Shown here in pieces: positions 6,115 to 36,930 of a stretch of 64,000 nt of DNA. The notes beneath the pieces were generated by a model. It ran no database searches. It saw only the letters and a list, made by a program, of their open reading frames with translations, and was not told the origin of the DNA. The stretch is from contig CP092881.1 of the NCBI GenBank assembly GCA_030710605.1, positions 70,733,118 through 70,797,117 on the forward strand, written 5' to 3'. The number at the start of each line of letters is the position of its first letter. Positions within the stretch are counted from its first letter, which is position 1. This stretch comes from Cordylochernes scorpioides. Taxonomy: Eukaryota > Arthropoda > Arachnida > Pseudoscorpiones > Chernetidae. Position numbers and translations under genes: made by a program.

Positions 6115-6160
6115 CACCTAGAGACCATGGTTCCGGGATAATGGCCCTCATCAGTCTAGG
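6115..6160 (-). ncRNA. Hammerhead ribozyme motif, family 1 copy A
   Basis: On the minus strand: stem I 5' strand CCTAGA, core CTGATGA (complement of 6148-6154), stem II GGGCC-ATTA, then GGAA where GAAA is expected, the self-complementary stem III ACCATGGT region, GTC, and stem I 3' strand TCTAGG. Stem I is a perfect 6 bp. The G-for-A change in the second core box probably inactivates this copy. Confidence 0.65.
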
Positions 6161-6346
6161 GCGGAGTTTATTCCATGAGATCCACACGGGATCTAATGGA
6201 ATCTTGACAATCTGCCAAAGAGGTGTATAGCTAATAGAGTGACTAGACCAAATCTATGGGGAAAATATGGATCGAAACATTGCTGGGAGGAAATTAATCC
6301 ATAAATATTAAGGTCTCTCTCCCGACATCTAATGAAATAAAGTCCG

Positions 6347-6392
6347 CCCTAAACTGACGAGGGCCATTAGCCCGAAACCATATCTCATGGTG
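6347..6392 (+). ncRNA. Hammerhead ribozyme motif, family 1 copy B
   Basis: Core CTGACGA at 6354-6360, stem II GGGC-CATTA-GCCC, GAAA at 6374-6377. The stem III / cleavage segment has drifted (CCATATC instead of CCATGGTC) and stem I pairs poorly, so likely degenerate. Confidence 0.55.
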
Positions 6393-6559
6393 GACACTTC
6401 TCACTTTGCCAAAGCTGGTGTCGTTGCTTTGTCACCGACGTGGGCCCGCTAATTTGCGGAAACGGTCAATAGATGGCATTTTAGCATCCGTTTTTCCTAG
6501 ATAGGTAAAACCTTCACTTTTTGGATCAATTTACCTCCCGGAATATGATATTAATTAAT

Positions 6560-7080
6560 CTTTAATTAAAAAGGCATATATTGGATAAAAATATCATTTA
6601 TTTTACCAATATTTCAGTTGACTGAACGCCAACCTTTATCAAGGTGTTATAACATTTTAATGTGTGTCAACAACAAACTTACAACAACAAAGAGTTTGTT
6701 GTTGAGACTCATTAATCCGTCCGTGGTAAGCTTTTCTTGATTAATCAAGAATGAGTATTTGGCCAATTCTGGAATAATAAAAAATCTATGAGAATAGTTT
6801 ATATTTATTCCGATAGATGGCGCAAGCAATCACCAACTTTCAGTTACACGATAAGGAGATGCCTTTTTCATAATTTATGCACCTTATCCGAGTACAATAT
6901 CACATTTGTACTATTTTTTCACATTAATATGTTATAACACCTTGATAAAGGTTGGCGTTCAGTCAACTGAAATATTAGTCAAATAAATGATATTTTGATC
7001 CAATATATGCCTTTTTAATTAAAGATTTATTTATAGATTGCCCTTATTTTCAAAACAAAAAATATTAATAGGCATATTTT
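6560..7080. mobile_element. Fold-back element, GGCATATATTGGATC family
   Basis: Inverted arms 6560-6660 and 6925-7030 share AAAGGCATATATTGGATC, AATATTTCAGTTGACTGAAC and CCAACCTTTATCAAGGTG. Other members: 7290-7535, 19790-19870, 33745-33850, 40680-41024, 43440-43745, 54890-55075. The arm contains a hairpin (GGTTGGC...GCCAACC) followed by GAAA that resembles a decayed hammerhead core. Confidence 0.7.
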
Positions 7081-7289
7081 GAATCAAAAATAAAAGATTT
7101 TATCTATTGCAGAATCAAATATTTCGCTAGACTATACACCTATCTTCGTCAGGGTTTTTCTGTTATTTTAAATGTTTTGGTTAACCACGCGATATCTTCA
7201 CGCGACGATATATAAATTATTTACAAAATGCCCTCTGTGGCTAAAATTTCAAATTTATACACAATTTTATATTATACAACTATATATTA

Positions 7290-7535
7290 GATAATAAAAA
7301 GGCATATATTGGATTTAATAATTGATTTATTTTGCCAATATTTCGGTTGGCTGAACGCCAAACCTTTATCAAGGCATTACATTTTTTTGGAAAAAAAAAA
7401 CATTTTATGATACAAAAATGTAATGCCTTGATAAAGGTTTGGCGTTCAGCCAACCGAAATATTGGCAAAATAAATATTTTATTAAATCCAATATATGCCT
7501 TTTTATTATCTAATGAATTAAATATGGATTGCTCT
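7290..7535. mobile_element. Near-perfect fold-back element, GGCATATATTGGATT subfamily
   Basis: Arms 7290-7390 and 7418-7520 are almost exact inverted copies around an A/T-rich spacer at 7383-7420. Two opposed short ORFs here are by-products of the symmetry, not genes. Confidence 0.75.
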
Positions 7536-7797
7536 ATTTTCAAAACAACTATACATTATATTATAATAAGAATGTTAAGTAGATTTTAACTGTAAATATA
7601 ACGGAGAGATGTCAATTTTTCTATTTATACTGTTGTTATCATTTGTTGATATCATTTATCTCCAGCTTTCTGGAAATAGTCTTGAGTGTTTATCCTAGAT
7701 ATTGTGGTATATAATTTCTGATTTTTCAAAATTTGGCATATGGTCCTGTTTTAGTGCGTGATCTACCAAAAGTGATAATGGACTATGGTTTATATAT

Positions 7798-7975
7798 ATT
7801 GTAGCAAGGTATTTATTATTTTATTAACAGAGTATCATTTTTATGTTTATATTTTACTACTCTGTAAACTTCCCTTATTGCTTATCTTTTTTTATTATTT
7901 ATAGTTTGTTCTTGTCTTAAATAAATTACAGTGTCATCCTGAAGTTTGTCTTCCCTAATTTTCCACATGGCGATA
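7798..7975 (+). mobile_element. CACGTGGCAATAT-family MITE, copy 3
   Basis: Same orientation as copy 1: starts TATTGTAGCAAGGTATTTAT and ends TTCCACATGGCGATATTGTA. Confidence 0.65.
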
Positions 7976-8595
7976 TTGTATTATAAGTAATGGAATTTGG
8001 CTTAGTAAAGCAGTTCCTAATCGGTTGAGGCTTTGATTATCCTAATGGGCAGTCGTGGAATTTTAGAAAAAGAGAAAATTAAGGATTAGAAAATTTATAA
8101 ATTTAGAAAATCTGCGCCACATCTAGATTTCTCTTAGATTGTATCATATAGTTTATATAGAAAATATTGGAAATATTTAGCAAAGAAAATAAAATTACAA
8201 AAATAATTACAACATATATACTTGTATATTCTCTTCTTTTTTTCTTCTCCATGTCTATATTTGAGATGACATTGTCATGAAAGGTTGGCTTTATGTCGAA
8301 TGTTGATTGTGTGTGTGCTGTGATCCATACCTTGATTATGAATAAATAACACTCAGAACGGGGATACAGTCACCAATATAGAACCTTTAAAACATATAGA
8401 ATCATACTATAGAACCTTTAAGTTCGATTCTTTTTCTATAAATCAATATCCTCTCTCCCGGAAAAATATCCTTCAATTATATTGTCGCGAAGAAAAAATA
8501 GACGGGAGGAGAGGTAAACCGAACTTTATTCTCTCTAACTGTCTGTCTTAAAATCTACGCACATTTATATAGCTATATGACATCATTAAAAACTT

Positions 8596-8775
8596 ATGTA
8601 ATTTATAATACAATATAATGCAGCTTATGGTTGTAAACGACATTAGAAAATTATCCCGCATGTGTTTCTTTTGAACGAAAAATCGAAATTTATTTCAAGG
8701 AGAAATAACGATTATTTCTAACCCTAGTGATGAAGTATGAAATGATGAATTGTGAAGAGTAATGATACTTATGTA
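8596..8775. mobile_element. CCGCATGTGTTTCTTTTGAAC family, single arm
   Basis: One arm of the fold-back family seen whole at 30808-31135, 50195-50628 and 54388-54712: CAATATAATGC, CCCGCATGTGTTTC, AACGATTATTTCTAACC, GATGAAGTATGAAA, GAAGAGTAATGAT. Confidence 0.65.
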
Positions 8776-8813
8776 AATCAATACAATCTGAAAATTATGC
8801 AAATTAACCACCC

Positions 8814-9010
8814 TACAATATCGTCACGTAGAAAATTAGGAAAGACAAACTCCAGAATGACACAGCAATTTATTTAGTGCAAACACAAATCAACATTTAT
8901 AAGATATAAGATAAGCAATGGTGGAATTCTCCAGAGTAACAAAATATAAATAATATAAATACTAAAATTAATAATCTATAGATTTAAATATAATGAAATA
9001 CTTTGCTACA
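8814..9010 (-). mobile_element. CACGTGGCAATAT-family MITE, copy 4
   Basis: Starts CAATATCGTCACGTAGAAAA and ends GAAATACTTTGCTACATTAT. More diverged than copies 1-3. Confidence 0.6.
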
Positions 9011-10029
9011 TTATAATAGAATCTCATATAGATAAAAACATGTTTTCCACTCACTAAAATACATAATTAAATATAAATAACCAAATTTTATTTAAAATAT
9101 ATTCATTACTTAATAGTTTTTAACCATACGAGACGTCACTCTATCCTATCAATTGATTTAAATAATTAGAAACAAAAGTTTCCAAAGAAAGAAAGCAATA
9201 AAAACAAATCGAGGATAATTAAAGGTTCCTTGTATTGGAATATACGACAAAAATTCCGTACAAGGAAAGCACACCGCTAGATGAGCTCAATCTATAACGG
9301 ATGGAAGAAAGGTTTAGCAATTAAGAAAAACATATTTGTGTTTTTCAGTTAAAAAAAAAATCCGATTATCGATTAATAATTAATCAACGATTATTTTTAA
9401 ATAATTAAATTTAAAATTCTCCCGTTTTAAATAATTTAAGAACGTTTTTTTATTGAGATGCTTTCTTATTTTCCAGTCTAATAGAAGAGATGGGAAATTG
9501 AATTTGGAGCATCTTTAACGTTTTAAAAGAGAAAATTCAATTTGTGGAAGATAGCAAGAAATAAAGTGTTTTTAAAATGGGTTCCTAAATTATAAAATAA
9601 TTTATTGTTGCATTTTTCATTGTCTTGGGTGTAGGTGTTTCCTACATTTTATCACTTTTTTAATTTAGGAGATGACTTTGCCCCCCATGAATGTAAGTTC
9701 TGGTATGTTATCAAAAGACAAATACCGGTACATTCAATCGTTCAATACTTTCCTCCATTTCTCTATGTGTGTAAAATTGGAAAAGGTGAGATAAATAGAG
9801 AGACTTTAAATAGCCAAAATTGACCCTTTAGACATTTATTATGTCCTCTCTTCTTATCTGTTTCTCAGTCTGTCATTACAGACCGGCCGTTGGTAAAGAC
9901 AAGGCGTATATGTATATATGGATTGTAGAGAAGATAGATGAAATGATAAATTGCTCAAATTCTTGATTAATAAAACGTTTAAAAATCATTGCGATGTTTT
10001 ATTTACATAATTCTTCCCTTTGTGGATCG
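9011..10029. other. AT-rich intron, no gene
   Basis: Homopolymer-rich sequence with no repeat copy or exon I could identify. 3573-4484 and 7976-8595 are similar; 3590-3800 is GC-richer and unassigned. Confidence 0.6.
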
Positions 10030-10279
10030 TCCAATGTAGATATTTCCACTGTGGAAAAAGGTGATAGAGATGTGGAAATTTCTAGCTCGGTTCAAATTGA
10101 TATGGATATAGACATCTCAAGTGTGGTACAAAGTGAATTCACATGTGGTACAAAGTGATATGAATGTAGACATTTCAAGTGTGGTACAAAGTGCTATCAA
10201 TGTATCAATAATGGTTCAGTTATATTTTAATGTAGCCAATTACAGTACTTGGTTAAAATATATGTTTATCTCGCCAATC

Positions 10280-13080
10280 CAGTATGGTACAATATTATTT
10301 CAATGTATTCTATTCCAGTATGTATGTTGTGTGTGGTGCAAATATTATTTCAATATAGCCAATTCCAGTATGCTACAAATATACTTTGATGTAGACAATT
10401 ACAGTATATGGTTAAAATATATGTTTATCTCGCCAATCCAGAATGGTTCATTATTATTTCAATGTTATTAATTCCAGTACGTGTATTTTGTGTATTTGTG
10501 GAAAATATTATTTCAATATAGCCAATTCCAGTATGCTACAAATATACTTTGATGTAGACAATTACAGTATATGGTTAAAATATATGTTTATCTCGCCAAT
10601 CCAGAATGGTTCATTATTATTTCAATGTTATTAATTCCAGTACGTGTATTTTGTGTATTTGTGGAAAATATTATTTCAATATAGCCAATTCCAGTATGCT
10701 ACAAATATACTTTGATGTAGACAATTACAGTATATGGTTAAAATATATGTTTATCTCGCCAATCCAGAATGGTTCATTATTATTTCAATGTTATTAATTC
10801 CAGTACGTGTATTTTGTGTATTTGTGGAAAATATTATTTCAATATAGCCAATTCCAGTATGCTACAAATATACTTTGATGTAGACAATTACAGTATATGG
10901 TTAAAATATATGTTTATCTCGCCAATCCAGAATGGTTCATTATTATTTCAATGTTATTAATTCCAGTACGTGTATTTTGTGTATTTGTGGAAAATATTAT
11001 TTCAATATAGCCAATTCCAGTATGCTACAAAAATACTTTGATGTAGACAATTACAGTATATGGTTAAAATATATGTTTATCTCGCCAATCCAGAATGGTT
11101 CATTATTATTTCAATGTTATTAATTCCAGTACGTGTATTTTGTGTATTTGTGGAAATTATTATTTCAATATAGCCAATTCCAGTATGCTACAAATATACT
11201 TTGATGTAGACAATTACAGTATATGGTTAAAATATATGTTTATCTCGCCAATCCAGAATGGTTCATTATTATTTCAATGTTATTAATTCCAGTACGTGTA
11301 TTTTGTGTATTTGTGGAAAATATTATTTCAATATAGCCAATTCCAGTATGCTACAAAAATACTTTGATGTAGACAATTACAGTATATGGTTAAAATATAT
11401 GTTTATCTCGCCAATCCAGAATGGTTCATTATTATTTCAATGTTATTAATTCCAGTACGTGTATTTTGTGTATTTGTGGAAAATATTATTTCAATATAGC
11501 CAATTCCAGTATGCTACAAAAATACTTTGATGTAGACAATTACAGTATATGGTTAAAATATATGTTTATCTCGCCAATCCAGAATGGTTCATTATTATTT
11601 CAATGTTATTAATTCCAGTACGTGTATTTTGTGTATTTGTGGAAAATATTATTTCAATATAGCCAATTCCAGTATGCTACAAAAATACTTTGATGTAGAC
11701 AATTACAGTATATGGTTAAAATATATGTTTATCTCGCCAATCCAGAATGGTTCATTATTATTTCAATGTTATTAATTCCAGTACGTGTATTTTGTGTATT
11801 TGTGGAAAATATTATTTCAATATAGCCAATTCCAGTATGCTACAAAAATACTTTGATGTAGACAATTACAGTATATGGTTAAAATATATGTTTATCTCGC
11901 CAATCCAGAATGGTTCATTATTATTTCAATGTTATTAATTCCAGTACGTGTATTTTGTGTATTTGTGGAAAATATTATTTCAATATAGCCAATTCCAGTA
12001 TGCTACAAAAATACTTTGATGTAGACAATTACAGTATATGGTTAAAATATATGTTTAACTCGCCAATCCAGAATGGTTCATTATTATTTCAATGTTATTA
12101 ATTCCAGTACGTGTATTTTGTGTATTTGTGGAAAATATTATTTCAATATAGCCAATTCCAGTATGCTACAAAAATACTTTGATGTAGACAATTACAGTAT
12201 ATGGTTAAAATATATGTTTATCTCGCCAATCCAGAATGGTTCATTATTATTTCAATGTTATTAATTCCAGTACGTGTATTTTGTGTATTTGTGGAAAATA
12301 TTATTTCAATATAGCCAATTCCAGTATGCTACAAAAATACTTTGATGTAGACAATTACAGTATATGGTTAAAATATATGTTTATCTCGCCAATCCAGAAT
12401 GGTTCATTATTATTTCAATGTTATTAATTCCAGTACGTGTATTTTGTGTATTTGTGGAAAATATTATTTCAATATAGCCAATTCCAGTATGCTACAAAAA
12501 TACTTTGATGTAGACAATTACAGTATATGGTTAAAATATATGTTTATCTCGCCAATCCAGAATGGTTCATTATTATTTCAATGTTATTAATTCCAGTACG
12601 TGTATTTTGTGTATTTGTGGAAAATATTATTTCAATATAGCCAATTCCAGTATGCTACAAAAATACTTTGATGTAGACAATTACAGTATATGGTTAAAAT
12701 ATATGTTTATCTCGCCAATCCAGAATGGTTCATTATTATTTCAATGTTATTAATTCCAGTACGTGTATTTTGTGTATTTGTGGAAAATATTATTTCAATA
12801 TAGCCAATTCCAGTATGCTACAAAAATACTTTGATGTAGACAATTACAGTATATGGTTAAAATATATGTTTATCTCGCCAATCCAGAATGGTTCATTATT
12901 ATTTCAATGTTATTAATTCCAGTACGTGTATTTTGTGTATTTGTGGAAAATATTATTTCAATATAGCCAATTCCAGTATGCTACAAAAATACTTTGATGT
13001 AGACAATTACAGTATATGGTTAAAATATATGTTTATCTCGCCAATCCAGAATGGTTCATTATTATTTCAATGTTATTAAT
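10280..13080. repeat. 163-bp tandem array (higher-order repeat)
   Basis: About 17 units at exactly 163-bp spacing (ATGGTTCATTATTATTTC at 10443, 10606 ... 12888), nearly identical; the first (10280) is diverged. Each unit contains four sub-monomers of about 36, 37, 36 and 54 bp. A diagnostic change (CTACAAATATAC to CTACAAAAATAC) is absent from units 1-4, present in 5, absent in 6 and fixed afterwards, showing local homogenisation. One unit has a private TTTAACTCG variant at 12053. Confidence 0.95.
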
Positions 13081-16000
13081 TCCAGTATGTGTGTACGTGT
13101 ATGTGTGGTGCAAATATTATTTCAATATAGCCAATTCCAGTATGTGTGTACGTGTATGTGTGGTGCAAATATTATCTCAATATAGCCAATTCCAGTATGT
13201 GTGTACGTGTATGTGTGGTGCAAATATTATTTCAATATAGCCAATTCCAGTATGTGTGTACGTGTATGTGTGGTGCAAATATTATCTCAATATAGCCAAT
13301 TCCAGTATGTGTGTACGTGTATGTGTGGTGCAAATATTATTTCAATATAGCCAATTCCAGTATGTGTGTACGTGTATGTGTGGTGCAAATATTATCTCAA
13401 TATAGCCAATTCCAGTATGTGTGTACGTGTATGTGTGGTGCAAATATTATTTCAATATATCCAATTCCAGTATGTGTGTACGTGTATGTGTGGTGCAAAT
13501 ATTATTTCAATATATCCAATTCCAGTATGTGTGTACGTGTATGTGTGGTGCAAATATTATTTCAATATAGCCAATTCCAGTATGTGTGTACGTGTATGTG
13601 TGGTGCAAATATTATTTCAATATATCCAATTCCAGTATGTGTGTACGTGTATGTGTGGTGCAAATATTATTTCAATATAGCCAATTCCAGTATGTGTGTA
13701 CGTGTATGTGTGGTGCAAATATTATTTCAATATATCCAATTCCAGTATGTGTGTACGTGTATGTGTGGTGCAAATATTATTTCAATATAGCCAATTCCAG
13801 TATGTGTGTACGTGTATGTGTGGTGCAAATATTATTTCAATATAGCCAGTTCCAGTATGTGTGTACGTGTATGTGTGGTGCAAATATTATCTCAATATAG
13901 CCAGTTCCAGTATGTGTGTACGTGTATGTGTGGTGCAAATATTATTTCAATATATCCAATTCCAGTATGTGTGTACGTGTATGTGTGGTGCAAATATTAT
14001 TTCAATATAGCCAATTCCAGTATGTGTGTACGTGTATGTGTGGTGCAAATATTATTTCAATATATCCAATTCCAGTATGTGTGTACGTGTATGTGTGGTG
14101 CAAATATTATTTCAATATATCCAATTCCAGTATGTGTGTACGTGTATGTGTGGTGCAAATATTATTTCAATATAGCCAATTCCAGTATGTGTGTACGTGT
14201 ATGTGTGGTGCAAATATTATTTCAATATAGCCAATTCCAGTATGTGTGTACGTGTATGTGTGGTGCAAATATTATTTCAATATATCCAATTCCAGTATGT
14301 GTGTACGTGTATGTGTGGTGCAAATATTATTTCAATGTTATCAATTCCAGTATGTGTGTACGTGTATGTGTGGTGCAAATATTATTTCAATATAGCCAAT
14401 TCCAGTATGTGTGTACGTGTATGTGTGGTGCAAATATTATTTCAATATATCCAATTCCAGTATGTGTGTACGTGTATGTGTGGTGCAAATATTATTTCAA
14501 TATAGCCAATTCCAGTATGTGTGTACGTGTATGTGTGGTGCAAATATTATTTCAATATAGCCAATTCCAGTATGTGTGTACGTGTATGTGTGGTGCAAAT
14601 ATTATTTCAATATAGCCAATTCCAGTATGTGTGTACGTGTATGTGTGGTGCAAATATTATTTCAATATAGCCAATTCCAGTATGTGTGTACGTGTATGTG
14701 TGGTGCAAATATTATTTCAATATAGCCAATTCCAGTATGTGTGTACGTGTATGTGTGGTGCAAATATTATTTCAATATAGCCAGTTCCAGTATGTGTGTA
14801 CGTGTATGTGTGGTGCAAATATTATTTCAATATAGCCAGTTCCAGTATGTGTGTACGTGTATGTGTGGTGCAAATATTATTTCAATATATCCAATTCCAG
14901 TATGTGTGTACGTGTATGTGTGGTGCAAATATTATTTCAATATAGCCAATTCCAGTATGTGTGTACGTGTATGTGTGGTGCAAATATTATTTCAATATAG
15001 CCAATTCCAGTATGTGTGTACGTGTATGTGTGGTGCAAATATTATTTCAATATAGCCAATTCCAGTATGTGTGTACGTGTATGTGTGGTGCAAATATTAT
15101 TTCAATATAGCCAATTCCAGTATGTGTGTACGTGTATGTGTGGTGCAAATATTATTTCAATATATCCAATTCCAGTATGTGTGTACGTGTATGTGTGGTG
15201 CAAATATTATTTCAATATAGCCAATTCCAGTATGTGTGTACGTGTATGTGTGGTGCAAATATTATTTCAATATAGCCAATTCCAGTATGTGTGTACGTGT
15301 ATGTGTGGTGCAAATATTATTTCAATATAGCCAATTCCAGTATGTGTGTACGTGTATGTGTGGTGCAAATATTATTTCAATATAGCCAATTCCAGTATGT
15401 GTGTACGTGTATGTGTGGTGCAAATATTATTTCAATATAGCCAATTCCAGTATGTGTGTACGTGTATGTGTGGTGCAAATATTATTTCAATATAGCCAAT
15501 TCCAGTATGTGTGTACGTGTATGTGTGGTGCAAATATTATTTCAATATAGCCAATTCCAGTATGTGTGTACGTGTATGTGTGGTGCAAATATTATTTCAA
15601 TATATCCAAATCCAGTATGTGTGTACGTGTATGTGTGGTGCAAATATTATTTCAATATAGCCAATTCCAGTATGTGTGTACGTGTATGTGTGGTGCAAAT
15701 ATTATTTCAATATAGCCAATTCCAGTATGTGTGTACGTGTATGTGTGGTGCAAATATTATTTCAATATAGCCAATTCCAGTATGTGTGTACGTGTATGTG
15801 TGGTGCAAATATTATTTCAATGTTATCAATTCCAGTATGTGTGTACGTGTATGTGTGGTGCAAATATTATTTCAATATAGCCAGTTCCAGTATGTGTGTA
15901 CGTGTATGTGTGGTGCAAATATTATTTCAATATAGCCAATTCCAGTATGTGTGTACGTGTATGTGTGGTGCAAATATTATCTCAATATAGCCAATTCCAG

Positions 16001-16560
16001 TATGTGTGTACGTGTATGTGTGGTGCAAATATTATTTCAATATAGCCAATTCCAGTATGTGTGTACGTGTATGTGTGGTGCAAATATTATTTCAATATAT
16101 CCAGTTCCAGTATGTGTGTACGTGTATGTGTGGTGCAAATATTATTTCAATATAGCCAATTCCAGTATGTGTGTACGTGTATGTGTGGTGCAAATATTAT
16201 TTCAATATATCCAGTTCCAGTATGTGTGTACGTGTATGTGTGGTGCAAATATTATTTCAATATAGCCAGTTCCAGTATGTGTGTACGTGTATGTGTGGTG
16301 CAAATATTATTTCAATATAGCCAATTCCAGTATGTGTGTACGTGTATGTGTGGTGCAAATATTATCTCAATATAGCCAATTCCAGTATGTGTGTACGTGT
16401 ATGTGTGGTGCAAATATTATTTCAATATAGCCAATTCCAGTATGTGTGTACGTGTATGTGTGGTGCAAATATTATTATCTCAATATAGCCAGTTCCAGTA
16501 TGTGTGTACGTGTATGTGTGGTGCAAATATTATTTCAATATAGCCAGTTCCAGTATGCTA
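13080..16560. repeat. 55-bp tandem array
   Basis: About 62 copies of a unit reading TCCAGTATGTGTGTACGTG, TATGTGTGGTGCAAATATTA, TTTCAATATAGCCAAT. It equals the fourth 54-bp sub-monomer of the 163-bp unit with GTGTGTACGTG in place of its variant. Variants (CTCAAT, ATATCC, CCAGTT, TGTTATC) are distributed in patterns; CTC alternates every 110 bp between 13170 and 13400. A unit near 16470 carries a 3-bp ATT insertion. Confidence 0.95.
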
Positions 16561-21520: not shown

Positions 21521-21521
21521 T

Positions 21522-22450: not shown

Positions 22451-22661
22451 TTATGAGAAATGGCCATATTTGGGTATTTATTCCATTCACAAAGCAAACG
22501 GTGACAGAATTGATTAAGAATTGTTGCTTGATTATGACGCTGATAACTATTTTTCTTAATTATACCGAATGTATTATATTAATAACAAGTTCTAATTTTA
22601 CAGTATCTACTAAAATCCCAGCTTATTGTCAAATCCCAAATGTTCCAACAAAGCTGTGCAG

Positions 22662-22902
22662 GCTCCTGCTAAGGCCCAATGGCACGGAGGTCTGACGGGC
22701 TTCTATGTGGGCTACCGGCCAGACACGGCGTCGGGAGAAGCCCCTCTGTACAAGACGGTGGAATGGTCGGGGCAGGGTCCCCTGGAAGCCCACCTCACCA
22801 ATCTCCGTCGCTCCACGGGATACCGCGTGGCTGTCCAGGCCTTCAACGGCAAGGGCGCCGGACCTGCCAGCGAGGAGGTGTCCGTACGGACTTTAGAGGA
22901 TG
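22662..22902 (+). CDS. Dscam-like gene, FN3 domain a, C-terminal half exon
   Basis: A 241-nt exon completes the FN3 domain begun at 784. It contains GFYVGYRP (strand C), the Leu/Tyr core LRRSTGYRVAVQAFN and the G-strand loop GKGAGPASEEV, and ends RTLED, a typical Dscam inter-domain linker. Acceptor AG is at 22660-22661 (phase 0) and donor GTGCGT starts at 22903 (phase 1). Its GC content is far above the flanking intron, as expected for constrained coding sequence. It acts in the extracellular membrane-proximal stalk. The open frame runs upstream of the acceptor and past the donor, but there it loses FN3 character, so I end the exon at the splice signals. Confidence 0.92.
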
Positions 22903-23199
22903 GTGCGTTATGTAGATATGTTTTTTTTCTTAAATTAATTCCAACTAGGCGTTATTTAGAACAAGCCGAGATGGTACATCGAGTTCAAGACAGAGATGGC
23001 TGGCGTCGTGTTTGGGATGTAATACGTACAGTGGGCCACAACGTTCGATCGCAAATAAAATGATTTATAAAATCTTACTTCGAACAAGAAATTTGTTGTC
23101 ACATATAAACTACTCTATGGATTTCTTACCATCAGCATATGGTCCGAAGACTAATTGTTATCATAGAGAATTATCAGGTAATAAAATGAAATACATAGC

Positions 23200-25429: not shown

Positions 25430-25740
25430 ATAAAAGTGTCCAGGGGCAGGAATCGAACCCACAACCTTCTGCTTACCGGGCAGGTGCCATGTCCACTAGG
25501 CTACCCTGGACGTATTTTTCCGTTCGTAACTAATACTTAAAGTAACTTATAATACATTATAAATGTATTATTATCATACGCCTCAGTCATTTATAATGTA
25601 TTATAAGTTACTTTATGTATTAGTTACGAACGGAAAAATACGTCCAGGGTAGCCTAGTGGACATGGCACCTGGGCAGAAGGTTGTGGGTTCGATTCCCGC
25701 CCCTGGACACCTTTATTTTTCCGTTCGCCATTACTCTTCA
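25430..25740. mobile_element. Fold-back element with tRNA-like arms
   Basis: Arms 25438-25511 and 25642-25708 are inverted copies of a tRNA-like sequence (GTCCAGGGTAGCCTAGTGG, box B GGTTCGATTCC, closing CCCTGGAC). The right arm lacks about 7 nt in the anticodon region. Between them an inner palindrome of TATAATACATTATAAATG type. Outer motif AAAATAAAAGTGTCC resembles 50365. Confidence 0.75.
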
Positions 25741-26199
25741 TACTAAAAATGTAATATTTAACTGTAATATTTCATTGGTCTTGTAGAACGAGACACGCGT
25801 TCTCCCATGTTTTAGTGAGAAACATCCTCGATAAAGAGAAGCGAGTCACCCTTCGAAATATCGGAATAATAAAAAATATTTATAAATCCAATATATGCAT
25901 ATTTTCTGAATATATATATATATTATATATAATATATATATTTTTTTTCCAGGATGAAATTCATCTATAACAATAAAAGTCGTATTTCCTTTCAAAATAG
26001 ACGCTAAATCTAAACACTATCTATTGACCGTCTCCGTAAACTGTTGTAGCTTTGTCACCAGCCCGAGTCCACTAGTAGGCTGAAATGGTTAATAGTTGGC
26101 GCTTAGCTTTATATCTATGTGTATTTTTTTATTGAGAACGCGATCTACGTAATCGAGAAGTTTACGTCAATACAGAGTGATAGATTGCAAGTATTCACA

Positions 26200-26470: not shown

Positions 26471-26474
26471 TAAA

Positions 26475-27610: not shown

Positions 27611-27619
27611 TGCAAATCT

Positions 27620-27850: not shown

Positions 27851-28199
27851 CCAGCAAATATTATATCCATTTTTAAACTTTAAAATGATTCAATTATACT
27901 GGAGATAAATGTGGTTTATAAAAATTATGATCAAGTATTGAAAGGTTGAGCCAAATCATATTTTATTGTTATGGAATCGATATAGTCTGTGTAGGAATAT
28001 TTGCGAGGCTATGGGCAAAATTAGATGAGGTAGTTTTATATGCACGAATTGATCATAGAATAAATTTACACTGCATTGTATTTAAATTTTGCCTACATTG
28101 ATTAAAATTAATTATGTCCAAGTATGGAATGCTCTATTTTAAATATAAATAGATTTGAGAACGACAGGATTATAAGATGATAAATTATTATTTTATTTC

Positions 28200-28466
28200 A
28201 TATTGGTATTTTTGACAATACATCCAGATGGCACAAGAACCTACAGGACATGCAACAACTGTCCTGGTGTGGAACTAACACCTACTCACATATTCTCATG
28301 CCCAGCAATGGCCGCAGCCTTGAAGAAAATTGACATGGACCCAGAGCAGCAGCTTTACACACCCAAGATAATGGACATTGCTGCTGCTGTGATAGAGATG
28401 TATGGATACATCTGGGTCTCTTCATTGGACATGGCAACAACAACACAGTATACGCACCCAAGATAG
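28200..28466 (+). pseudogene. LINE C-terminal fragment feeding a tandem array
   Basis: The frame encodes CNNCPGVELTPTHIFSCP and AVIEMYGYI, again a C-x2-C...H...C tail of a LINE ORF2. It runs directly into the 98-bp array, whose units repeat the last coding segment (AKIxDIAxAVIEMYGDI-stop). Confidence 0.72.
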
Positions 28467-30299: not shown

Positions 30300-30393
30300 A
30301 CTAAAGAGACAAAGGTCGCCTCTCCCGTCAAAACCAGACGCCATCTATTGAACGTCGCCGCAAACTAGCGGCCTCGGGTTGGTGACAAAGCGT

Positions 30394-30440
30394 CCACCAA
30401 GAGACCATGGTTTCGGGCTAATGGCCCTCGTCAGTCTAGG
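30394..30440 (-). ncRNA. Hammerhead ribozyme motif, family 1 copy C (core intact)
   Basis: Minus strand: CCCTAGA, CTGACGA (complement of 30428-30434), stem II GGGC-CATTA-GCCC (4 GC pairs), GAAA (complement of 30411-30414), CCATGG, TC, TCTTGG. All invariant core boxes and a GTC cleavage triplet are present. Stem I pairs over six positions with one U-U mismatch. Stem III is the 8-nt self-complementary ACCATGGT, which could pair intramolecularly (tight) or between two copies. Confidence 0.7.
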
Positions 30441-30807
30441 GCGGGCTTTATTCCATGAGATCCACACGGGATCTAATGGAATCTTGACAATCTGCCAAAG
30501 AGGTGTTTAGCTGGCAAAGTGGCTGGGCAAAATCTATGGCTAAAATATAGATGGAAATTTGTCCAGGAGGATAATGATCTAAAGAGACAAAGGTCGCCTC
30601 TCCCGTCAAAATAGACGTCAAAACCAGACGCCATCTATTGACAAAAAATAACGAATCAATATATTTTAATGTTCTTTTTTATCTCTCTGACTGATGTACA
30701 CCTAGGTCTCCATTCTCTGTGGAAATTCTTCAACATTCAGATCGACGTGATGTCACATTATTGTACCAAAGAGGATTCCTTGAAGTCCTGAGTCAACAAG
30801 ATCTTAC

Positions 30808-31135
30808 TTATAATACAATATAATGCGGCTTATGATTGTAGAACGACATTTGAAAATTATCCCGCATGTGTTTCTTTTAAACGAAAAATCGAAATTTTTT
30901 TTAAGGATAAATAACGATTATTTCTAACCTTAGGGATGAAGTATGAAAGGATGAATTGTGAAGAGTAATGATAAACGGACACTTTATTTTTCCGTTTATC
31001 ATTACTCTTCACAATTCACCCTTTCATACTTCACCCCTAAGGTTAGAAATAATCGTTATTTCTCCTTAAAATAAATTTTGATTTTTCATTCAAAAGAAAC
31101 ACTTGCGGGATCATTTACAAATGTCGTTCTACAAG
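30808..31135. mobile_element. CCGCATGTGTTTC-family fold-back, complete
   Basis: Arms of about 160 bp meet at 30970-30990, where GATAAACGGACACTTTATTT closes a tight hairpin. The tRNA-like core seen at 50385 is missing. Confidence 0.8.
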
Positions 31136-31217
31136 ATCCTATTTCTAAAATATATTTAATATTATTGCATTTAGGATTATATTGAATTAATATATGAATA
31201 AACAATTAATGTTATTT

Positions 31218-31600
31218 ATTTGCTATATGATGTAAATATATCGGAATATATTTTCTTTTTCTGCACAAAGATGCAATAGCTTATCCTGAAACATTGTAAC
31301 TTTATTTACTATCGTATGAATATTTTTTTTTTCAAATTGCGTGTTAAATATTTCATTCGAAACTATTATAGACGCGTATGAATTTTTTTTTAATTGAAAA
31401 ATTTCTACTGTCCTTACTGCAATGGAAAAATTAATGGGAGAGTTCACCACTGATGAGCCAGGCCCACCCATTAATTTTTCCATTGCAGTAAGGGCAGTAG
31501 AAATTGTTCAATTTTCAAAAGAATCTTACGCGTCTATAATAGTTTCGAATTTTCATAACAGATGGCGCTCTAATGCATCAATAAATATTTCATTATTATC
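31218..31600. mobile_element. CTGCCCTTACTGCAATG family, fold-back copy
   Basis: Arms 31345-31440 and 31465-31560 are inverted around AGTTCACCACTGATGAGCC. Ends in AACAGATGGCGCTCTAATGC, 60 bp before a Dscam acceptor. Confidence 0.7.
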
Positions 31601-31660
31601 AATAAAAATCGTTGATAGTGGATATATAAATGACATGGCTATATCCAATGTGATGTACAG

Positions 31661-31846
31661 AGTATGTTGTCCATTACCGACGGGAGAGCGAGCCGTGGCG
31701 CCAGGCCGCGGTGCCGGGCAACCTCTCCGGCTACACGCTGGCTGACCTGGAGTGTGGCCGGGGTTACCAGCTATACGTAACGGCGCACAACTCTGTCGGC
31801 AAGTCCGAGCCCAGTGAACTGCTGAGTGCACGGACGGACGGGGCAG
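31661..31846 (+). CDS. Dscam-like gene, FN3 domain b, C-terminal half exon
   Basis: A 186-nt exon, phase 1 to phase 1, acceptor AG at 31659-31660, donor GTGAGT at 31847. The split codon with exon 24233-24331 gives Glu and a good strand-C motif (VKEYVVHYRRE). It continues with ADLECGRGYQLYVTAHNSVG, the hallmark of canonical Dscam FN3-5 (L-x-C-G-x-x-Y-Q-L-Y-x-T-A). GNLS is a possible N-glycosylation site. The 7.3-kb intron before it holds the 98-bp array, LINE ends and fold-back elements. Recognition is strong. Confidence 0.92.
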
Positions 31847-32559
31847 GTGAGTGGATCTAGCTATAGATAGGGAGGTGACCATTTGTTGTGGGGACAGAGG
31901 GTGACTTTTGGTGGTTATGGGAACTGAATATATGGGGAGCCGTTGTATGTGGTTGGTACAAGAATTTGTTACAAGAACTGTTCTATATCTGGGACAATAT
32001 TTCATCCTGCTTTCAGGCTTGTTCCTTTTATTTATTATTGGTTCTAAGATAGATACAACAAACTTTTATTTCATTCTGTGGTTTAATAATAAGTTCAATA
32101 TACTTTTTAGCAAGATTTAATTGTAAGAATATGATTTTATATTATATATAGGATGTGGCAAGTCGGGAAAACCATAAATGAGAGTACAGCAAGTTGCGAG
32201 CCCACTGTGTATAATATTAAAATAGCCAACAATACATGTTAATATGTTTTAAAAAGCTAAAAACCTTTCCCTTTGCAATCACTATACAGAGATGAAATTA
32301 AATAATTAAAAAGGTTTCCAAAGATGAGTTCCTTTTTATTTTATTAAAACATTCTCAATTTTTAGGCATCTCTGTTCTTCTATAGGAAAACATATAAATT
32401 TAATAAAACGCAGTCTGATGCCAAACTATGGAAACCTTTTTAATTGATTAATTAATGAACAGGAGACTTAAATCACTTGACAGAGATGAAATAAATAAGG
32501 TGTTATCACATACACCCATCAGCCGCATTGTATTAATAAATATACTTTTTATAATAAAA
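31847..32559. other. Intron, no exon seen
   Basis: AT-rich; AAAGGTTTCCA at 32310 and its inverse at 32425 form a weak 130-bp fold-back. Confidence 0.5.
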
Positions 32560-32850
32560 ATGAAAACACCTAAAACGCGAATGTTTCTTTTCACAAATAA
32601 ATTACACTTCTACTGTCCTTACTGCGATGAAAAAATATTGGGAGAGCTTGACTCATCAGTGGTGAACCCTCCCAGCGGTTTCGCCAATTTAATCTACCAG
32701 TCCGCTTCTTCAGAGCTCTAATACTGTATTGGATTATTCTGCTTTTATATGTTACACTGAAGGGTGGAATCTTAAAATGGTATTCAACTAAACTATGTAC
32801 ATAAGCTTATAGGACAGTATAATTATATTTAAATACTTATTATAAGTTAG
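32560..32850 (+). mobile_element. TACTGTCCTTACTGCGATG family, longest single copy
   Basis: Contains an 88-codon ORF (32455-32721) with FYCPYCDEKILGELDSSVVN. The same reading frame is partly kept in other copies. Function unknown; a CxxC knuckle would fit a small zinc-binding peptide, but chance is not excluded. Confidence 0.55.
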
Positions 32851-32929
32851 GTAATCATCATCTGGAGCATTAAATCATAAAAAGTACAAAATCGTGAAGC
32901 GAAGAGCTTCTTGTAAGGTTTTTTATTTA

Positions 32930-33520
32930 ATCGAGCTTTCGGGTATCTCTGCCCTTTAAATTTCTGTTTGATGAGAAGGACAGAGCCAATATCCAATTAT
33001 TTGTTTAGGCAGGTACGATAAGTTAACCCCCCACACTGATAAAACAGTGTTTACCTTACAACCCTGAACACTCGGATTTTCCTGGAAAATCTCTTAAAGA
33101 TTTCTTGAAAAAGCCATGGCCCACCTGTGCTGTGTGAGCCGAAGAGCTTGAATTGACTTGTTCCATATGTAAATACCTGTTTTCTTTCCTCTTTTCGTTC
33201 TCCACTTCTCCCATCCATATTTCCTTTTTTTATGTTTTTTTCTTCTTATAATCTGTATATATTTACCATATGTATATAATCTTTCTCCATTTTTTATTTC
33301 CCACTTTCATAGGTTTCTCCGTCTTGTAACCCCAAGGAGAATACTCTGTAAGACCTGTGTGTCTTAATAAAGGCTTTTGTGTGTGTGTGTATCTCTGCCC
33401 TTCTACAGGAGTAAGAATGAATAATTGAATAATAAAAATGTTCACTTCTGTAGAAGGAGAGAAATGCACGAAATCTCGGATGAATAAAAACCTTACGAGA
33501 AACTCTTCGCCTCACGATTT
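32930..33520. mobile_element. Element bounded by inverted TCGAGCTTTCGGG / CGAAATCTCG ends, LINE tail inside
   Basis: GAAGAGCTTCTTGTAAGGTT and its inverse (CTTACGAGAAACTCTTCGCC) bound the segment, with CTTTCGGGTATCTCTGCCCT twice (32937, 33390). Inside, 33170-33385 looks like a LINE 3' UTR ending CTTAATAAAGGC and a (GT)n run. Confidence 0.5.
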
Positions 33521-34203
33521 TGTACTTTTGATAACATACAAGGGTCACTTCAAAAGTTTTTTCAATCAATATTAAATAATTAAAAAATAAATTATGCCAT
33601 TAAAATCTCTACATGCAATTTCTACCTAACATAAATAATTTTAAGATTACAAAATATTTTCTCACAATGAATTTCTTTTTTTTTTTTTTCAAGTGATGCT
33701 TTCAAGTGATAATCGCTCTTCAATTTAATCGTGAATAGAGATTTATATTTAATTAAAAAGGCATATATTGGATCAAAATATCATTTATTTTGATCTAATA
33801 TATGCTTTTTAATTAAAGATTTATCTATGGATTGCTCTATTTTCAAAAAGATATTTATATGAAATGGAGAAGTATAAAATCTTATTTTACAAGAAATAAA
33901 CTCATTGTGAGAAAATATTTTGTAATTTTAAAAGTTTTCACAATTTTATCATGAATAAGCATTTTTATAAAATATAACAACAATGACTGATAGAGGGATT
34001 GTTTACTGTGCAGCAACGGTAATTTCTAAACATTGCATCATACACAATGGAATTGACTATAGAAAGTTGACGCGCCATGATCTTTTTTGATGTATTGCTT
34101 CTCTCTAAACAAATTGAGACGTGCTTTGTGGGTATTTCGTTATTCTACGTGCATGTAATGTCTAACTGACCACCGACTGACACAACTAACGCCATGTCTG
34201 CAG
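33521..34203. other. Intron with a hairpin remnant
   Basis: 33750-33835 is a compact hairpin of GGCATATATTGGATC type; GATTACAAAATATTTTCTCA and its inverse (33650, 33910) form outer arms. Otherwise AT-rich. Confidence 0.55.
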
Positions 34204-34500
34204 CCCCGTTGTCTCCGGGCCAGGCGGAGTTTGTGAGGACCGGGATGCGAAACGCCACGCTGCAGCTATCGGCCTGGAGGTCCGGTGGCTGTGGAGTGAG
34301 CGGGTTCGCCGTGCGGGTGCGGACGGGAGGCGGGGCGTGGAGACCGGTAGCCGTTCCCAGCCCTCACAACGGCTCCTTGCAGCTCACCGGCCTCTCACCC
34401 GGCACCTGGGTGGACCTCCACGTCACGGCCCGCTCCCCCGCCGGGGACACCGAGGCTACCTACCACTTCCAGACCCTCAACCACTCCGCCCCTCTCCGAG
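34204..34500 (+). CDS. Dscam-like gene, FN3 domain c (FN3-6-like), single exon
   Basis: A 297-nt exon encodes a whole FN3 domain of 99 residues, phase 1 to phase 1 (acceptor AG 34202-34203, donor GTGAGA 34501). It has the features of the last Dscam FN3 domain: AWRSGGCGVSGFAVRVR, then LSPGTWVDLHVTARSPAGDTEATYHFQTL in pieces. The Gly-Gly-Cys and the L-x-P-G-T-W-x-x-L-x-V-T-A pattern are diagnostic for FN3-6. NATL, NGS and NHS are possible glycosylation sites. It lies directly before the transmembrane exon, as in Dscam. GC content is very high against an AT-rich background. Confidence 0.93.
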
Positions 34501-34817
34501 GTGAGAACACTCATTCGCCTACTCTGACATCTTCAATCGATCCTCTAAGCATATTTTCTTTTACCTATTTTCTATATCCACACAACAAAACAGAAAATTT
34601 TAGTTTTAGGTTTCGATGTCAGGTAGAGGAGTATATGTGGATCACATGTTGAGAGCATACAGACTCTGGGTCCTGAATACCTCTTCATATGAGATCCCCA
34701 TATGCTCCTCTAGGCCCCGGGTAGTTAGCGCTCTGCGCTCCAGGAACCTGAGTTATAAATATTTCTCTCTCCTCATAGGCACTGTATAGTCCAACTCACA
34801 TTGAGGCTGCCATGCAG

Positions 34818-35180
34818 GGAATGAAGTCCGCGGAGCCCGCAACAGCGAGGACTCTGCGCCCAGGACTCCGCGAGGATCCTCCCTGGGCGATCTGGAGATC
34901 CTGGTCCCCGTAGCTGTGTCGGCGGCCGTGGTGTGTGTTGTCGTGGCCGTGGGCTGCGTGCTGTGTGCCCGGGAGCTGCGCTGTCTCTCGTCCTCCCAGC
35001 CAGGTACTGACGTCGCACAACACTGGGCGGGGTACAACACTGCTGTGGTCGGTGCAGGAGCTGGCAGGCATCTCGACCGCAAGCAATCGCGGGACATCGT
35101 CATGAAGGAACTCTCAGGGGAGCAGGGTGTGGAGGAGAATCCCCGCGGAGGGTACCATACGTCGATCTACAGTCCTCGAG
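34818..35180 (+). CDS. Dscam-like gene, transmembrane and juxtamembrane exon
   Basis: Acceptor AG at 34816-34817, phase 1. The first residues are an acidic linker (SLGDLEIL), then a hydrophobic single-pass helix of about 23 residues from VPVAVSAAVVCVVVAV to CVLCA, then basic RELRC, the expected stop-transfer. Two phase-1 donors are possible. CAG-GTACTG would end the exon at 35003. GAG-GTACAG would end it at 35180 and adds 59 in-frame GC-rich residues including YNTAVV, DRKQSRDIVMKEL and GYHTSIYSP. I favour the longer form because the extra 177 nt (a multiple of three) has no stop and keeps exon-like composition. If unspliced, the frame ends at TAG in 35192-35194. Either donor is phase-compatible with 48444. 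Confidence 0.82.
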
Positions 35181-35194
35181 GTACAGTCCTGTAG

Positions 35195-36754
35195 TGTGTA
35201 GCCCTCGGCATGCTGCGACCTCAGAGAGCTCTTCTCTCTTTGTACTTAATGTAGGGACGGGTTAATAGGTGTTGATCTAAATATTGAATAGTTTGAAGTT
35301 ACTTATCATTTTTCTACAAACCATACTAAACCCAAAGCTACTTAGAAAGATTAGTTCATCGGTGGCGAACTTTCTCTGCAGTTTCACCATTTCAATCTTC
35401 ACATCGCTATTATAGTATTGGCTAACTCTGGTCAAATACAGACCAACATTTTAAGATTAAAAATAGTACAAAAGTGAAATTATACTGCGATCAGGTGCAT
35501 AAATTAAGAAATAAAGGCATTTTCTGATATAGTGCAACTAACATCAGTATCTTTTAGTTGCACAATCCGGAGATGTCTTTTTTCTTAATTTTAAGATTTT
35601 TTGTTCTATGTTTGCGCCCGATCTAACAACTTATGGAAAATGAAAATTTCAAAGAGTAATATTTGAGCTTTTATCTTCTTTTGAGAGAGACCACATATAA
35701 AAGCTCTTCGGTCTTTAAGATAAATAATGACAAACGTGGAGCATTTAAACAATGGGAAGAGCTTCAGTATTGTACATTCTCTTGAGGTGTCCAACCGTTA
35801 TGTCGCCAAGTGTCACAACAATAATGCGCTCCGCCAATGTTCAACTTGACGTCTACTTTGTGAGTGTGTCACAACCCACGGGGTTTGAGGAAATCAATGT
35901 ACCTAGACACCAATGGAATCTCAGACCCTGGCAACTGGTGCCTGCTTACATTTGGTCAAATGGCTCTATAAAATCTCATCTTCAAATTCTTCACCTTAAC
36001 CCGCGCGTCGATCAGTCCTAAAGTTCATTCAGATTGGAATATTAAGGTGACATAATGCACACACCCAATATATGTAAAATAAAAAAATGTCTCTTTAAAA
36101 TATATTTCATAGATTCAATGACTCTGTTAAATCGACCACCAGAGGTCGCCGTTTTCCCTATAAAAACTCATTGTTGTTGTTTCCCGTTGGCTGGCTCAAA
36201 TATTTTGTACATTATGTAAATAAGTTTTCATTTTTTGGATTCTTACGCCTTAAGCCAGGCATTACCTTTCTCAAGTTATGTTTTCTATATTTCTTTAGCT
36301 CAATTAAAGCTATTTTTTATAACTAATTTTATTTAATTTTTTCCACGACTGCATTACCGATACCATTTAGTTCTAAAAAGTACCAGCAAATAATTACCAT
36401 AGCATAATCATCGGGATGATCAAGGGTTAACAGAAATTTCCATTATATATAACATATATATTCACAAATATCATTCGAATTCTCTCAAAAAAGAGAACAT
36501 ATAGTGTTTTGACCTAAATTTGAATCCTGTTTGGATGATCTTAGAGTGCTAATTATATTTTATGGCGAGAAACACAAAGATATCATCACCCAGTGTATGA
36601 TGGACGAAGAATTCAACCGATTGAATAATATTATTACTCATTGAACTCTTAATAGCGCGTGGTCCGATATTGATGTCAGGAAACTTATTTCTCAATAGTG
36701 ATATAGGAATAAAATCCAAAGAAAAAAACTTTAAAGACAACTACAAAGAACCAT
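35195..36754. other. Large intron, mostly unassigned
   Basis: 35310-35560 carries a worn ATCAGTGGTGAACTTTC-type repeat. 35750-36020 has mixed composition and an unrecognised 89-codon frame. No splice-bounded exon in Dscam phase was found. Confidence 0.5.
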
Positions 36755-36885
36755 AGAAGCATATGTCGCCGCTCCCGTCAAAATAAACGTCAAAACCTGA
36801 CGCCATCTATTGACCTTCGCCTCAAACTAACGGCCTCGGGTCGGTGACAAAGCCACAACACCAGCTTTGGCAAACTGAGAAGCGT

Positions 36886-36930
36886 ACCTAGAGACCATGG
36901 TTTCGGGCTAATGGCCTTCGTCAGCCTAGT
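36886..36930 (-). ncRNA. Hammerhead ribozyme motif, family 1 copy D
   Basis: Minus strand: CTAGG, CTGACGA (complement of 36918-36924), AGGC-CATTA-GCCC, GAAA, CCATGG, TC, TCTAGG. Core boxes and GTC are intact and stem I has five pairs including one wobble, but the first stem II pair is A-C. Confidence 0.65.

What the first reader, a model, noticed from the sequence alone, without database searches (positions are those of the whole stretch)
6115..36930. Hammerhead ribozyme cores in a fold-back repeat family (four copies)
Seen: at 6115-6160(-), 6347-6392(+), 30394-30440(-) and 36886-36930(-) the order CTGANGA, GC-rich stem II, GAAA (GGAA in one), self-complementary ACCATGGT, TC, and a stem I complement is kept. 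Copies C and D keep every core box and a GUC site. Stem III is palindromic, which suits pairing between two molecules, as known for short-stem-III hammerheads. Inference: a non-autonomous, ribozyme-bearing retroelement.
Basis: partly seen in the sequence, partly recalled or inferred. Interest (0 to 1): 0.82.

Follow-up and report, generated by a model that had tools for sequence, protein, structure and literature searches.

The report
Penelope-type repeats carrying dimer-type hammerhead ribozymes
Short repeats in this animal genome carry a self-cutting RNA motif that probably works when two copies pair, and their insertion scars match those of Penelope retrotransposons, which points to the machinery that spreads such ribozyme-bearing repeats.

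Summary
The hammerhead motifs are real. Copy C (30440-30397, minus strand) passes a strict core-plus-stems descriptor; 0.02 hits are expected per shuffled window. A, B and D are decayed relatives. The 32-letter core occurs 8,774 times exactly in the 2.62-Gb genome and 25,391 times with up to 3 mismatches, backward control 0. Together with a second ribozyme family the stems covary. Stem III is the palindrome ACCAUGGU; the two-strand fold of an intact genomic copy is the double hammerhead, so dimer cleavage is the best reading.

The carrier is a non-autonomous retroelement of about 280-320 bp with Penelope-type scars: outward 3' ends, a 12-bp duplication around D, and a 32-bp tail on one arm only. 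Six larger Penelope-like elements of this genome, picked by me, show the same ends and carry a minimal hammerhead near the 3' end with a 4-letter palindromic stem III. Each ingredient is in print; I did not find the combination, or 6- and 8-letter palindromes, in the listings searched. No activity was tested; no helper sharing its letters was found.

The parts
6117..6160 (-). Hammerhead copy A: stem I CCTAGA/TCTAGG, CTGATGA, stem II, GGAA (A13 is G), octamer ACCATGGT, C17 at 6123
   Evidence: model match 94.6 bits (by construction)
6348..6394 (+). Hammerhead copy B, decayed: core boxes and stem II kept, octamer and GUC site lost
30397..30440 (-). Hammerhead copy C: all core letters, stem II intact, octamer ACCATGGT, predicted cleavage after C at 30403; one U.U in stem I
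36887..36930 (-). Hammerhead copy D: core letters and octamer kept, C17 at 36893; A.C at first stem II pair; stem I CTAGG/TCTAG
5993..6545 (.). Fold-back element A/B: minus-strand unit (A) and plus-strand partial unit (B), 3' ends outward; edges approximate; no target-site duplication found
30301..30642 (-). Element C: about 1.23 tandem units (direct repeats 30301-30333 / 30579-30611, shift 278, and 30326-30351 / 30616-30641, shift 290); no target-site duplication found
36751..37050 (.). Fold-back element D: minus-strand arm ending 3' at 36751 (site 1) and plus-strand arm ending 3' at 37050
37019..37050 (+). 32-bp tail of D: plus-strand arm runs past the shared end GCTTCTATGG into the start of the next unit
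36739..36750 (+). Target-site duplication AACTACAAAGAA, left copy
37051..37062 (+). Target-site duplication AACTACAAAGAA, right copy
25948..26121. Decayed relative E without hammerhead: opposed 3' parts between TATTTTTTT repeats (low complexity, weak; the self-alignment did not recover its arms)

Best explanation
The repeats are copies of a small non-autonomous retroelement (unit about 280-320 bp, no protein) that carries a type I, minimal-class hammerhead ribozyme and is inserted by Penelope-type machinery. Proposed cycle: (1) tandem copies are transcribed into multimeric RNA (inferred; same-strand neighbours 319 bp apart are seen). (2) The 8-letter palindrome that stands in for stem III pairs between two ribozymes, so that stems I and III are formed by two strands, and both strands cleave after GUC, giving unit-length RNAs (folding shown for an intact copy, cleavage inferred). 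(3) The units may be ligated into circles, as known for animal retrozymes (inferred). (4) A Penelope reverse transcriptase with GIY-YIG endonuclease primes DNA synthesis inside the RNA at one of two start points about 32 nt apart, on both nicked target strands, and the two cDNAs meet head to head (inferred from the ends). The result is a fold-back copy with two outward 3' ends, one short and one with the tail, between duplications of about 10-14 bp (shown for D and some genomic copies). Single-ended copies and partial tandems such as C come from the same templates.
For: Core letters and stems; 8,774 exact and 25,391 near copies, backward control 0; covariation with a second family; double-hammerhead two-strand fold for the 51-nt majority string and for genomic copies L009 and L010, which are identical over the 52 letters folded: 8 of 8 octamer pairs, 7.2 kcal/mol below two monomers. 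End geometry: 20 of 34 loci have 3' ends on both sides, 14 one 3' and one 5', 0 two 5' ends. Among the first 100 listed exact copies, neighbours within 700 bp are 9 minus/plus, 0 plus/minus, 3 same-strand, the three all 319 bp apart (read from the listing). Alignment edges near the 3' end are bimodal: of 63 that do not reach the end of the reference, 22 lie exactly at +32 and 20 at -15, where the reference copy lacks letters next to site 1 (34 loci and 4 window pieces; some edges lie inside loci or in neighbouring copies). D: 12-bp duplication abutting both ends, tail on one arm only. Six Penelope-like elements of the same genome with GIY-YIG matches on both arms (frames with a [YF]xDD motif in 5 of 6): 6 of 6 have a 10-14 bp duplication and a 22-48 bp tail on one arm only, swapped flanks 0 of 30; ribozyme units 6 of 16, swapped 5 of 240. 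The same six carry a minimal hammerhead 68-89 nt before the 3' end of the arm. Published Penelope structure: inverted pLTR, 9-bp duplication, 31-bp tail on one inverted pLTR (PMC3846280, passages); two reverse-transcription start sites that delimit the tail, both target strands cleaved and extended (PMC11167929, passages and part of one section).
Against: No cleavage, transcript or circle was observed. No autonomous Penelope element sharing letters with this unit was found (0 hits in 34 loci; 0 of 34 hold this ribozyme within 8 mismatches), so the helper is unknown. Rfam gives no hammerhead match at E up to 5 to five intact-copy loci of this family (L009, L010, L014, L019, L036) nor to the Penelope loci L061, L062, L070. 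For copies C and D, and for L069, L070 and L062, the lowest-energy two-strand fold is not the double hammerhead. With octamer letters shuffled, 37 of 500 strings gain as much energy on dimerising. A weak 2-bp stem III with a 4-letter loop is sterically possible, so monomer cleavage is not excluded. Catalytic positions T4/A6/A13 vary about as often as three loop II positions (193 against 213 copies), so no purifying selection is visible. Only 6 of 16 fold-back ribozyme loci pass the duplication-plus-tail test; A/B does not. The loci for that test were chosen after one search had been seen. In vitro, the anole Penelope element did not need its hammerhead for insertion (PMC11167929), and the Adineta paper explains head-to-head copies by self-priming on an antisense template rather than by priming on both target strands (PMC3846280).
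Confidence: 0.75

Rival explanations
1. Animal retrozyme in the strict sense: small tandem repeats with a canonical type I hammerhead, expressed as circles, mobilised by an unidentified non-LTR element; the Penelope-like ends are coincidental.
For: Unit size, 45-49% G+C and tandem neighbours 319 bp apart fit the published description (PMC7229834, sections 13 and 17).
Against: Stem III is an 8-letter palindrome rather than a stable closed helix; in the sample fold-back and single copies outnumber tandems; ends show Penelope-like tails.
Confidence: 0.12
2. Penelope machinery moves the unit, but the fold-back arises by self-priming on an antisense template (as proposed for Adineta Penelope elements), not by priming on both target strands.
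For: Proposed in PMC3846280 for the frequent head-to-head copies (passages).
Against: The two outer ends differ, one short and one with the tail, inside one duplication; the anole protein cleaves and extends both target strands.
Confidence: 0.25
3. Fold-back (terminal-inverted-repeat) DNA transposon or MITE in which the hammerhead is a passenger.
For: Inverted arms in A/B and D.
Against: Outer ends are not inverted copies of one another (one has a tail); 14 of 34 loci have only one 3' end; partial tandems exist; duplications vary in length.
Confidence: 0.03
4. The motif is no longer, or never was, a working ribozyme: a fossil carried along in the repeat, perhaps kept as promoter or protein-binding site.
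For: All four window copies have at least one defect; catalytic and loop positions decay about equally; the anole Penelope ribozyme did not cleave without protein (PMC11167929).
Against: Stems covary between two families; 8,774 exact cores; the six Penelope elements examined keep such a motif at a similar place.
Confidence: 0.2

Closest known systems
Minimal type I hammerheads of Penelope-like elements (Cervera and de la Pena 2014; Lunse, Weinberg and Breaker 2017; not held, seen only as cited in PMC7761336, PMC7229834 and PMC11167929; further details recalled)
   Same: Type I layout, diminished stem III, dimer cleavage proposed, Penelope association, thousands of dispersed copies
   Different: Stem III here is an 8-letter palindrome (a second family has 6); the carrier has no protein. 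Whether the published sets include such palindromes I could not check
Animal non-LTR retrozymes (Cervera and de la Pena 2020, PMC7229834)
   Same: Non-coding unit of about 300 bp with a type I hammerhead, some direct tandems, G+C just under 50%
   Different: Fold-back and single copies outnumber tandems in the sample; Penelope-like tails and duplications; dimer-type ribozyme; circular RNA not shown
Penelope-like elements with inverted pLTRs, tail and target-site duplication (Adineta vaga, PMC3846280; Anolis PAc, PMC11167929)
   Same: Head-to-head inverted arrangement, about 31-bp tail on one end, 8-10 bp duplication (Adineta); hammerhead at the pLTR-ORF junction (PAc)
   Different: No reverse transcriptase or endonuclease in the unit; longer stem III palindrome
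Rfam RF02275 Hammerhead_HH9
   Same: Core and type I layout; weak match of copy C (20.1 bits) and of L069 (28 bits)
   Different: Far below the gathering score of 52; stem III and loops differ

Membership tests
Hammerhead ribozyme (type I, dimer type) | Conserved core CUGANGA ... GAA, A15.1-U16.1, cleavable NUH | tested here: met
   Copy C and 8,774 exact genomic copies; not met in A (position 13) and B (site lost)
Hammerhead ribozyme (type I, dimer type) | Stems I and II supported by compensatory changes | tested here: met
   8 of 10 stem I, 1 of 4 stem II and 1 of 3 stem III pairs change on both sides over 43 distinct rows. The alignment was fitted to the structure, most double changes separate two families, and weaker measures are reached by some shuffles (pairs 5 of 500, pair types 37 of 500). 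None within the four window copies
Hammerhead ribozyme (type I, dimer type) | Stem III, within one strand or between two | tested here: met
   8 of 8 octamer pairs between strands for the majority string, L009 and L010; absent from their lowest-energy monomer folds; a 2-bp version within one strand is possible but not predicted
Hammerhead ribozyme (type I, dimer type) | Self-cleavage | not testable with these tools
   No experiment possible
Rfam hammerhead families | Match at or above gathering score | tested here: not met
   None in the window; copy C 20.1 bits to HH9 in an 81-base search; none at E up to 5 in five intact-copy loci
Penelope-like element (non-autonomous) | Head-to-head inverted copies with 3' ends outward | tested here: met
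   20 of 34 loci, 0 with two 5' ends; A/B and D in the window
Penelope-like element (non-autonomous) | Tail of about 30-40 bp on one end only | tested here: met
   D: 32 bp on one arm; 22 edges at exactly +32
Penelope-like element (non-autonomous) | Short target-site duplication | tested here: met
   D 12 bp; 6 of 16 fold-back loci pass duplication plus tail against 5 of 240 swapped; none found for A/B and C
Penelope-like element, autonomous | Reverse transcriptase and GIY-YIG endonuclease in the element | tested here: not met
   Units of about 280-320 bp are too short; the 91-codon frame through D has no Pfam match. Frames in the flanks of the 37 ribozyme loci were listed but not searched for domains
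Penelope-like element (non-autonomous) | Sequence shared with an autonomous helper | tested here: inconclusive
   No similarity to the 34 Penelope loci held; one search scored only 150 of 17,015 candidates, so other families were not examined
Animal retrozyme | Unit of 150-450 bp with type I hammerhead in direct tandem | tested here: inconclusive
   Three same-strand neighbours 319 bp apart among the first 100 places; C is about 1.23 units; most loci mapped are not tandem
Animal retrozyme | Expressed as circular RNA | not testable with these tools
   No RNA data
Plant LTR retrozyme | Type III hammerhead in LTRs with PBS and PPT | tested here: not met
   Stem I is the open stem, so type I; LTRs, PBS and PPT not searched for

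The most novel reading that the evidence does not exclude
A family of dimer-type ribozymes in which stem III is replaced by self-complementary strings of 4, 6 or 8 letters in different elements of one genome, carried in part by small non-coding units whose insertion scars show that Penelope machinery moves them: each fold-back copy records target-primed synthesis on both DNA strands, one started at site 1 and the other about 32 nt further on. That would supply the mobiliser so far only suspected for animal retrozymes.
Probability: 0.35. Interest if true: 0.7.

Novelty: new variant of a known kind. Interest (0 to 1): 0.5.

Why it matters
How ribozyme-bearing non-autonomous repeats of animals are mobilised is open in the papers read (PMC7229834 and PMC7761336 name Penelope elements as strong or likely candidates). 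Here non-coding ribozyme units and larger Penelope-like elements of the same genome show the same end pattern, which gives that idea a testable genomic signature. Palindromic stem III strings of different length and sequence also give a simple rule for finding dimer-type hammerheads that the Rfam models missed in the loci tested here.

Tried and rejected
Rfam at gathering score and permissive on A/B and D: no hammerhead; permissive on nine genomic loci: only the second family in L069 (28 bits). Covariation within the four window copies: none. Ribozyme pattern in viral contigs and genome contigs and an arm pattern in viral contigs: 0; these hold viral and prokaryote sequence, so little was expected. 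First pattern had one N too few; replaced. Selection on catalytic positions: none visible. Similarity of the unit to 34 Penelope loci: none. Plain MAFFT of the two ribozyme families misplaces stem III, so no pairs were counted on it. DNA transposon and plant retrozyme readings rejected on ends and ribozyme type.

Rows dropped: L003, L023, L029 (same places as L004, L022, L028); L002-L004, L023, L029 not. In one search the ribozyme loci were 14 fold-back loci plus A/B and D, a list I fixed; L012, L022, L024 and L036, among others, were not tested there (L022 and L036 show a duplication with a one-sided tail). Of 14 fetched Penelope regions 6 were tested; L059 and L064 run to the locus edge, L069 has AT-repeat edges, the rest were not resolved as fold-back. 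L060's duplication lies in locally repeated flanks and is the least certain. The 14 regions were picked for long frames or close opposed GIY-YIG pairs, so they say nothing about how common fold-back Penelope copies are. Searches do not agree on every locus as to fold-back (for example L030); L004, the reference, was itself among the targets.

Changed after checking: confidence 0.8 to 0.75 and novel case 0.4 to 0.35, because a 2-bp stem III is possible within one strand and because PMC3846280 offers self-priming for head-to-head copies.


Full report
What was checked. The four places were read directly. Three of the four (A, C, D) hold the order stem I, CTGANGA, stem II, GAA(A), ACCATGGT, C, stem I; B has lost the octamer and the cleavage site. 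A has G at core position 13, D an A.C first pair in stem II, C a U.U in stem I. A strict descriptor (core, three stem II pairs, stem III start, NUH, stem I with at most one mismatch in five) finds only copy C in the window and a mean of 0.02 (largest 2) in 200 dinucleotide shuffles. Rfam finds no hammerhead at gathering score; in an 81-base search copy C matches RF02275 at 20.1 bits, E 0.0034. In nine genomic loci searched at E up to 5 Rfam reports a hammerhead only for the second family in L069 (28 bits): none for five loci with intact copies of the window family (L009, L010, L014, L019, L036) and none for the Penelope loci L061, L062, L070; one search finds none in 14 Penelope regions at gathering score.

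Genome-wide evidence. The window lies in a 2.62-Gb genome of 24 contigs. The host is an animal: a DSCAM-type FN3 domain lies in the window. The ribozyme pattern with stem II left free occurs 13,886 times, backward control 0; the exact 32-mer 8,774 times; with up to 3 mismatches 25,391 times, control 0. A model built from the four window copies, run over 35 sources, gave 52 matches; seven of them, at 34-47 bits, belong to a second family with a different stem I and, in five of the seven, the 6-letter palindrome ACGCGT. Over the 43 distinct rows 93.2% of cells pair (shuffles 85.5); 48 cells change on both sides (shuffles 9.8, sd 2.6; slid structures at most 11); 10 of 17 pairs do (shuffles 6.3, reached by 5 of 500). 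The four window copies alone show no covariation.

How the ribozyme would work. Within one strand ACCAUGGU could close at most a 2-bp stem with a 4-letter loop, and the lowest-energy monomer folds of the majority string and of L009/L010 do not form it. The two-strand minimum-energy fold of the 51-nt majority string, and of copies L009 and L010 (identical over the 52 letters folded), is the double hammerhead: stem II within each strand, stems I and III between strands, 8 of 8 octamer pairs, 7.2 kcal/mol below two monomers. Shuffling the octamer gives at least 6 such pairs in 21 of 500 strings, though 37 of 500 gain as much energy in some other way. Copies C and D and three other ribozymes (L069, L070, L062) do not have the double hammerhead as their lowest-energy pair fold. 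Other ribozymes of this genome also carry self-complementary stem III strings: ACGCGT (its motif has 7,610 exact copies), AGCT (Penelope element L062; also L057) and ACGT (Penelope elements L060, L061, L067, L068, L070). The strings differ in length and letters but stay self-complementary. The five ACGT cases were read by eye; [quoted passage not shown] in L060 the motif letters are intact on one arm only. Cleavage is not shown.

What the carrier is. The unit is 278 bp (C) to about 311 bp (A), 45-49% G+C, too short for the Penelope enzymes; the one frame through D (91 codons) has no Pfam match. C is about 1.23 direct units. D is 300 bp, lies between two copies of AACTACAAAGAA that abut both ends, and consists of a minus-strand arm ending at GCTTCTATGG (36751) and a plus-strand arm running 32 bp past the same point (37019-37050). 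Of 34 mapped loci (37 fetched less three duplicates; 6 from a copy C query, 28 from the pattern), 20 have 3' ends on both sides, 14 one 3' and one 5' end, none two 5' ends. In the first 100 listed exact copies, neighbours within 700 bp are 9 minus/plus, 0 plus/minus and 3 same-strand, all 319 bp apart (read from the listing); in the second family 8, 0 and 1. Alignment edges near the 3' end fall mainly at two points: 22 of 63 exactly at +32, and 20 at -15, where the reference copy lacks letters next to site 1.

The link to Penelope elements. GIY-YIG matches are common in this genome (146 matches among the 150 candidates scored). I fetched 14 such regions, chosen for long frames or close opposed pairs. 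Six with resolved fold-back arms were tested; they have GIY-YIG matches on both arms, and five of six hold a frame with a [YF]xDD motif. All six have a 10-14 bp duplication with a 22-48 bp tail on one arm and none (within 4 bp) on the other; flanks swapped between loci give 0 of 30. The same test on ribozyme units gives 6 of 16, swapped 5 of 240. The six carry a minimal hammerhead 68-89 nt before the end of the arm. This is the published Penelope anatomy: inverted pLTR, 9-bp duplication and a 31-bp tail at one of the inverted pLTRs in Adineta (PMC3846280, passages), and two internal reverse-transcription start sites delimiting the tail, with both target strands cut and extended, in the anole element (PMC11167929, passages and part of section 3). 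No Penelope element sharing letters with the unit was found among the 34 loci held, so the helper remains unknown.

Mechanism, steps marked. Shown: motif, pairing, copy number, end geometry, duplication, tail. Inferred: multimeric transcription, dimer cleavage, circularisation, priming at two sites on both strands, head-to-head joining (in D the arms seem to meet at a shared CTAG, my reading). A published alternative for the head-to-head joining is self-priming on an antisense template (PMC3846280). Against a necessary role for cleavage: the anole element inserts without it in vitro and its ribozyme cleaves only with protein added, and catalytic positions in genomic copies vary about as often as loop positions (193 against 213 variants), as expected of dead copies but giving no sign of selection.

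Known or new. Minimal dimer-type hammerheads of Penelope elements and animal retrozymes are in print (PMC7229834: abstract, passages and sections 13 and 17; PMC7761336: passages; the 2014 and 2017 primary papers were not held, and are recalled or seen as cited). Penelope elements are named there as likely mobilisers of retrozymes. Searches of the library did not list a paper describing this combination, judged from titles and abstract starts except for the four papers named; the library lacks most subscription journals. I therefore rate it a new variant of a known kind, interest 0.5.

Noticed in passing
L061 1375-1429 (-); L010 295-338 (-): Matches to the type-P1 twister ribozyme model below gathering score (49 bits, E 5.3e-8; and 24 bits, E 0.77); another ribozyme-bearing repeat may exist in this genome.
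   Followed up: no
window 25438-25510 (-) and 25643-25708 (+): Two opposed tRNA-like sequences about 130 bp apart, the second lacking part of the anticodon arm.
   Followed up: no
window 10222-13144 and 13060-16557: Two adjoining tandem arrays, period 163 (18 copies, 98%) and period 55 (63.5 copies, 97%).
   Followed up: no
window 22614-23060 and 34170-34649 (+): FN3 domains, the second matching the DSCAM C-terminal Fn3-like family; copy C lies between them, perhaps in an intron of a Dscam-like gene.
   Followed up: partly
window 59790-60824 (-): Tc1/mariner-type transposase open over 345 codons.
   Followed up: no
L007 798-865, L026 2327-2394, L034 2785-2852, L006 2796-2866, L015 1064-1131, L069 1265: Second hammerhead family with stem III ACGCGT; one form of its motif has 7,610 exact copies genome-wide, close pairs again minus/plus.
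   Followed up: partly
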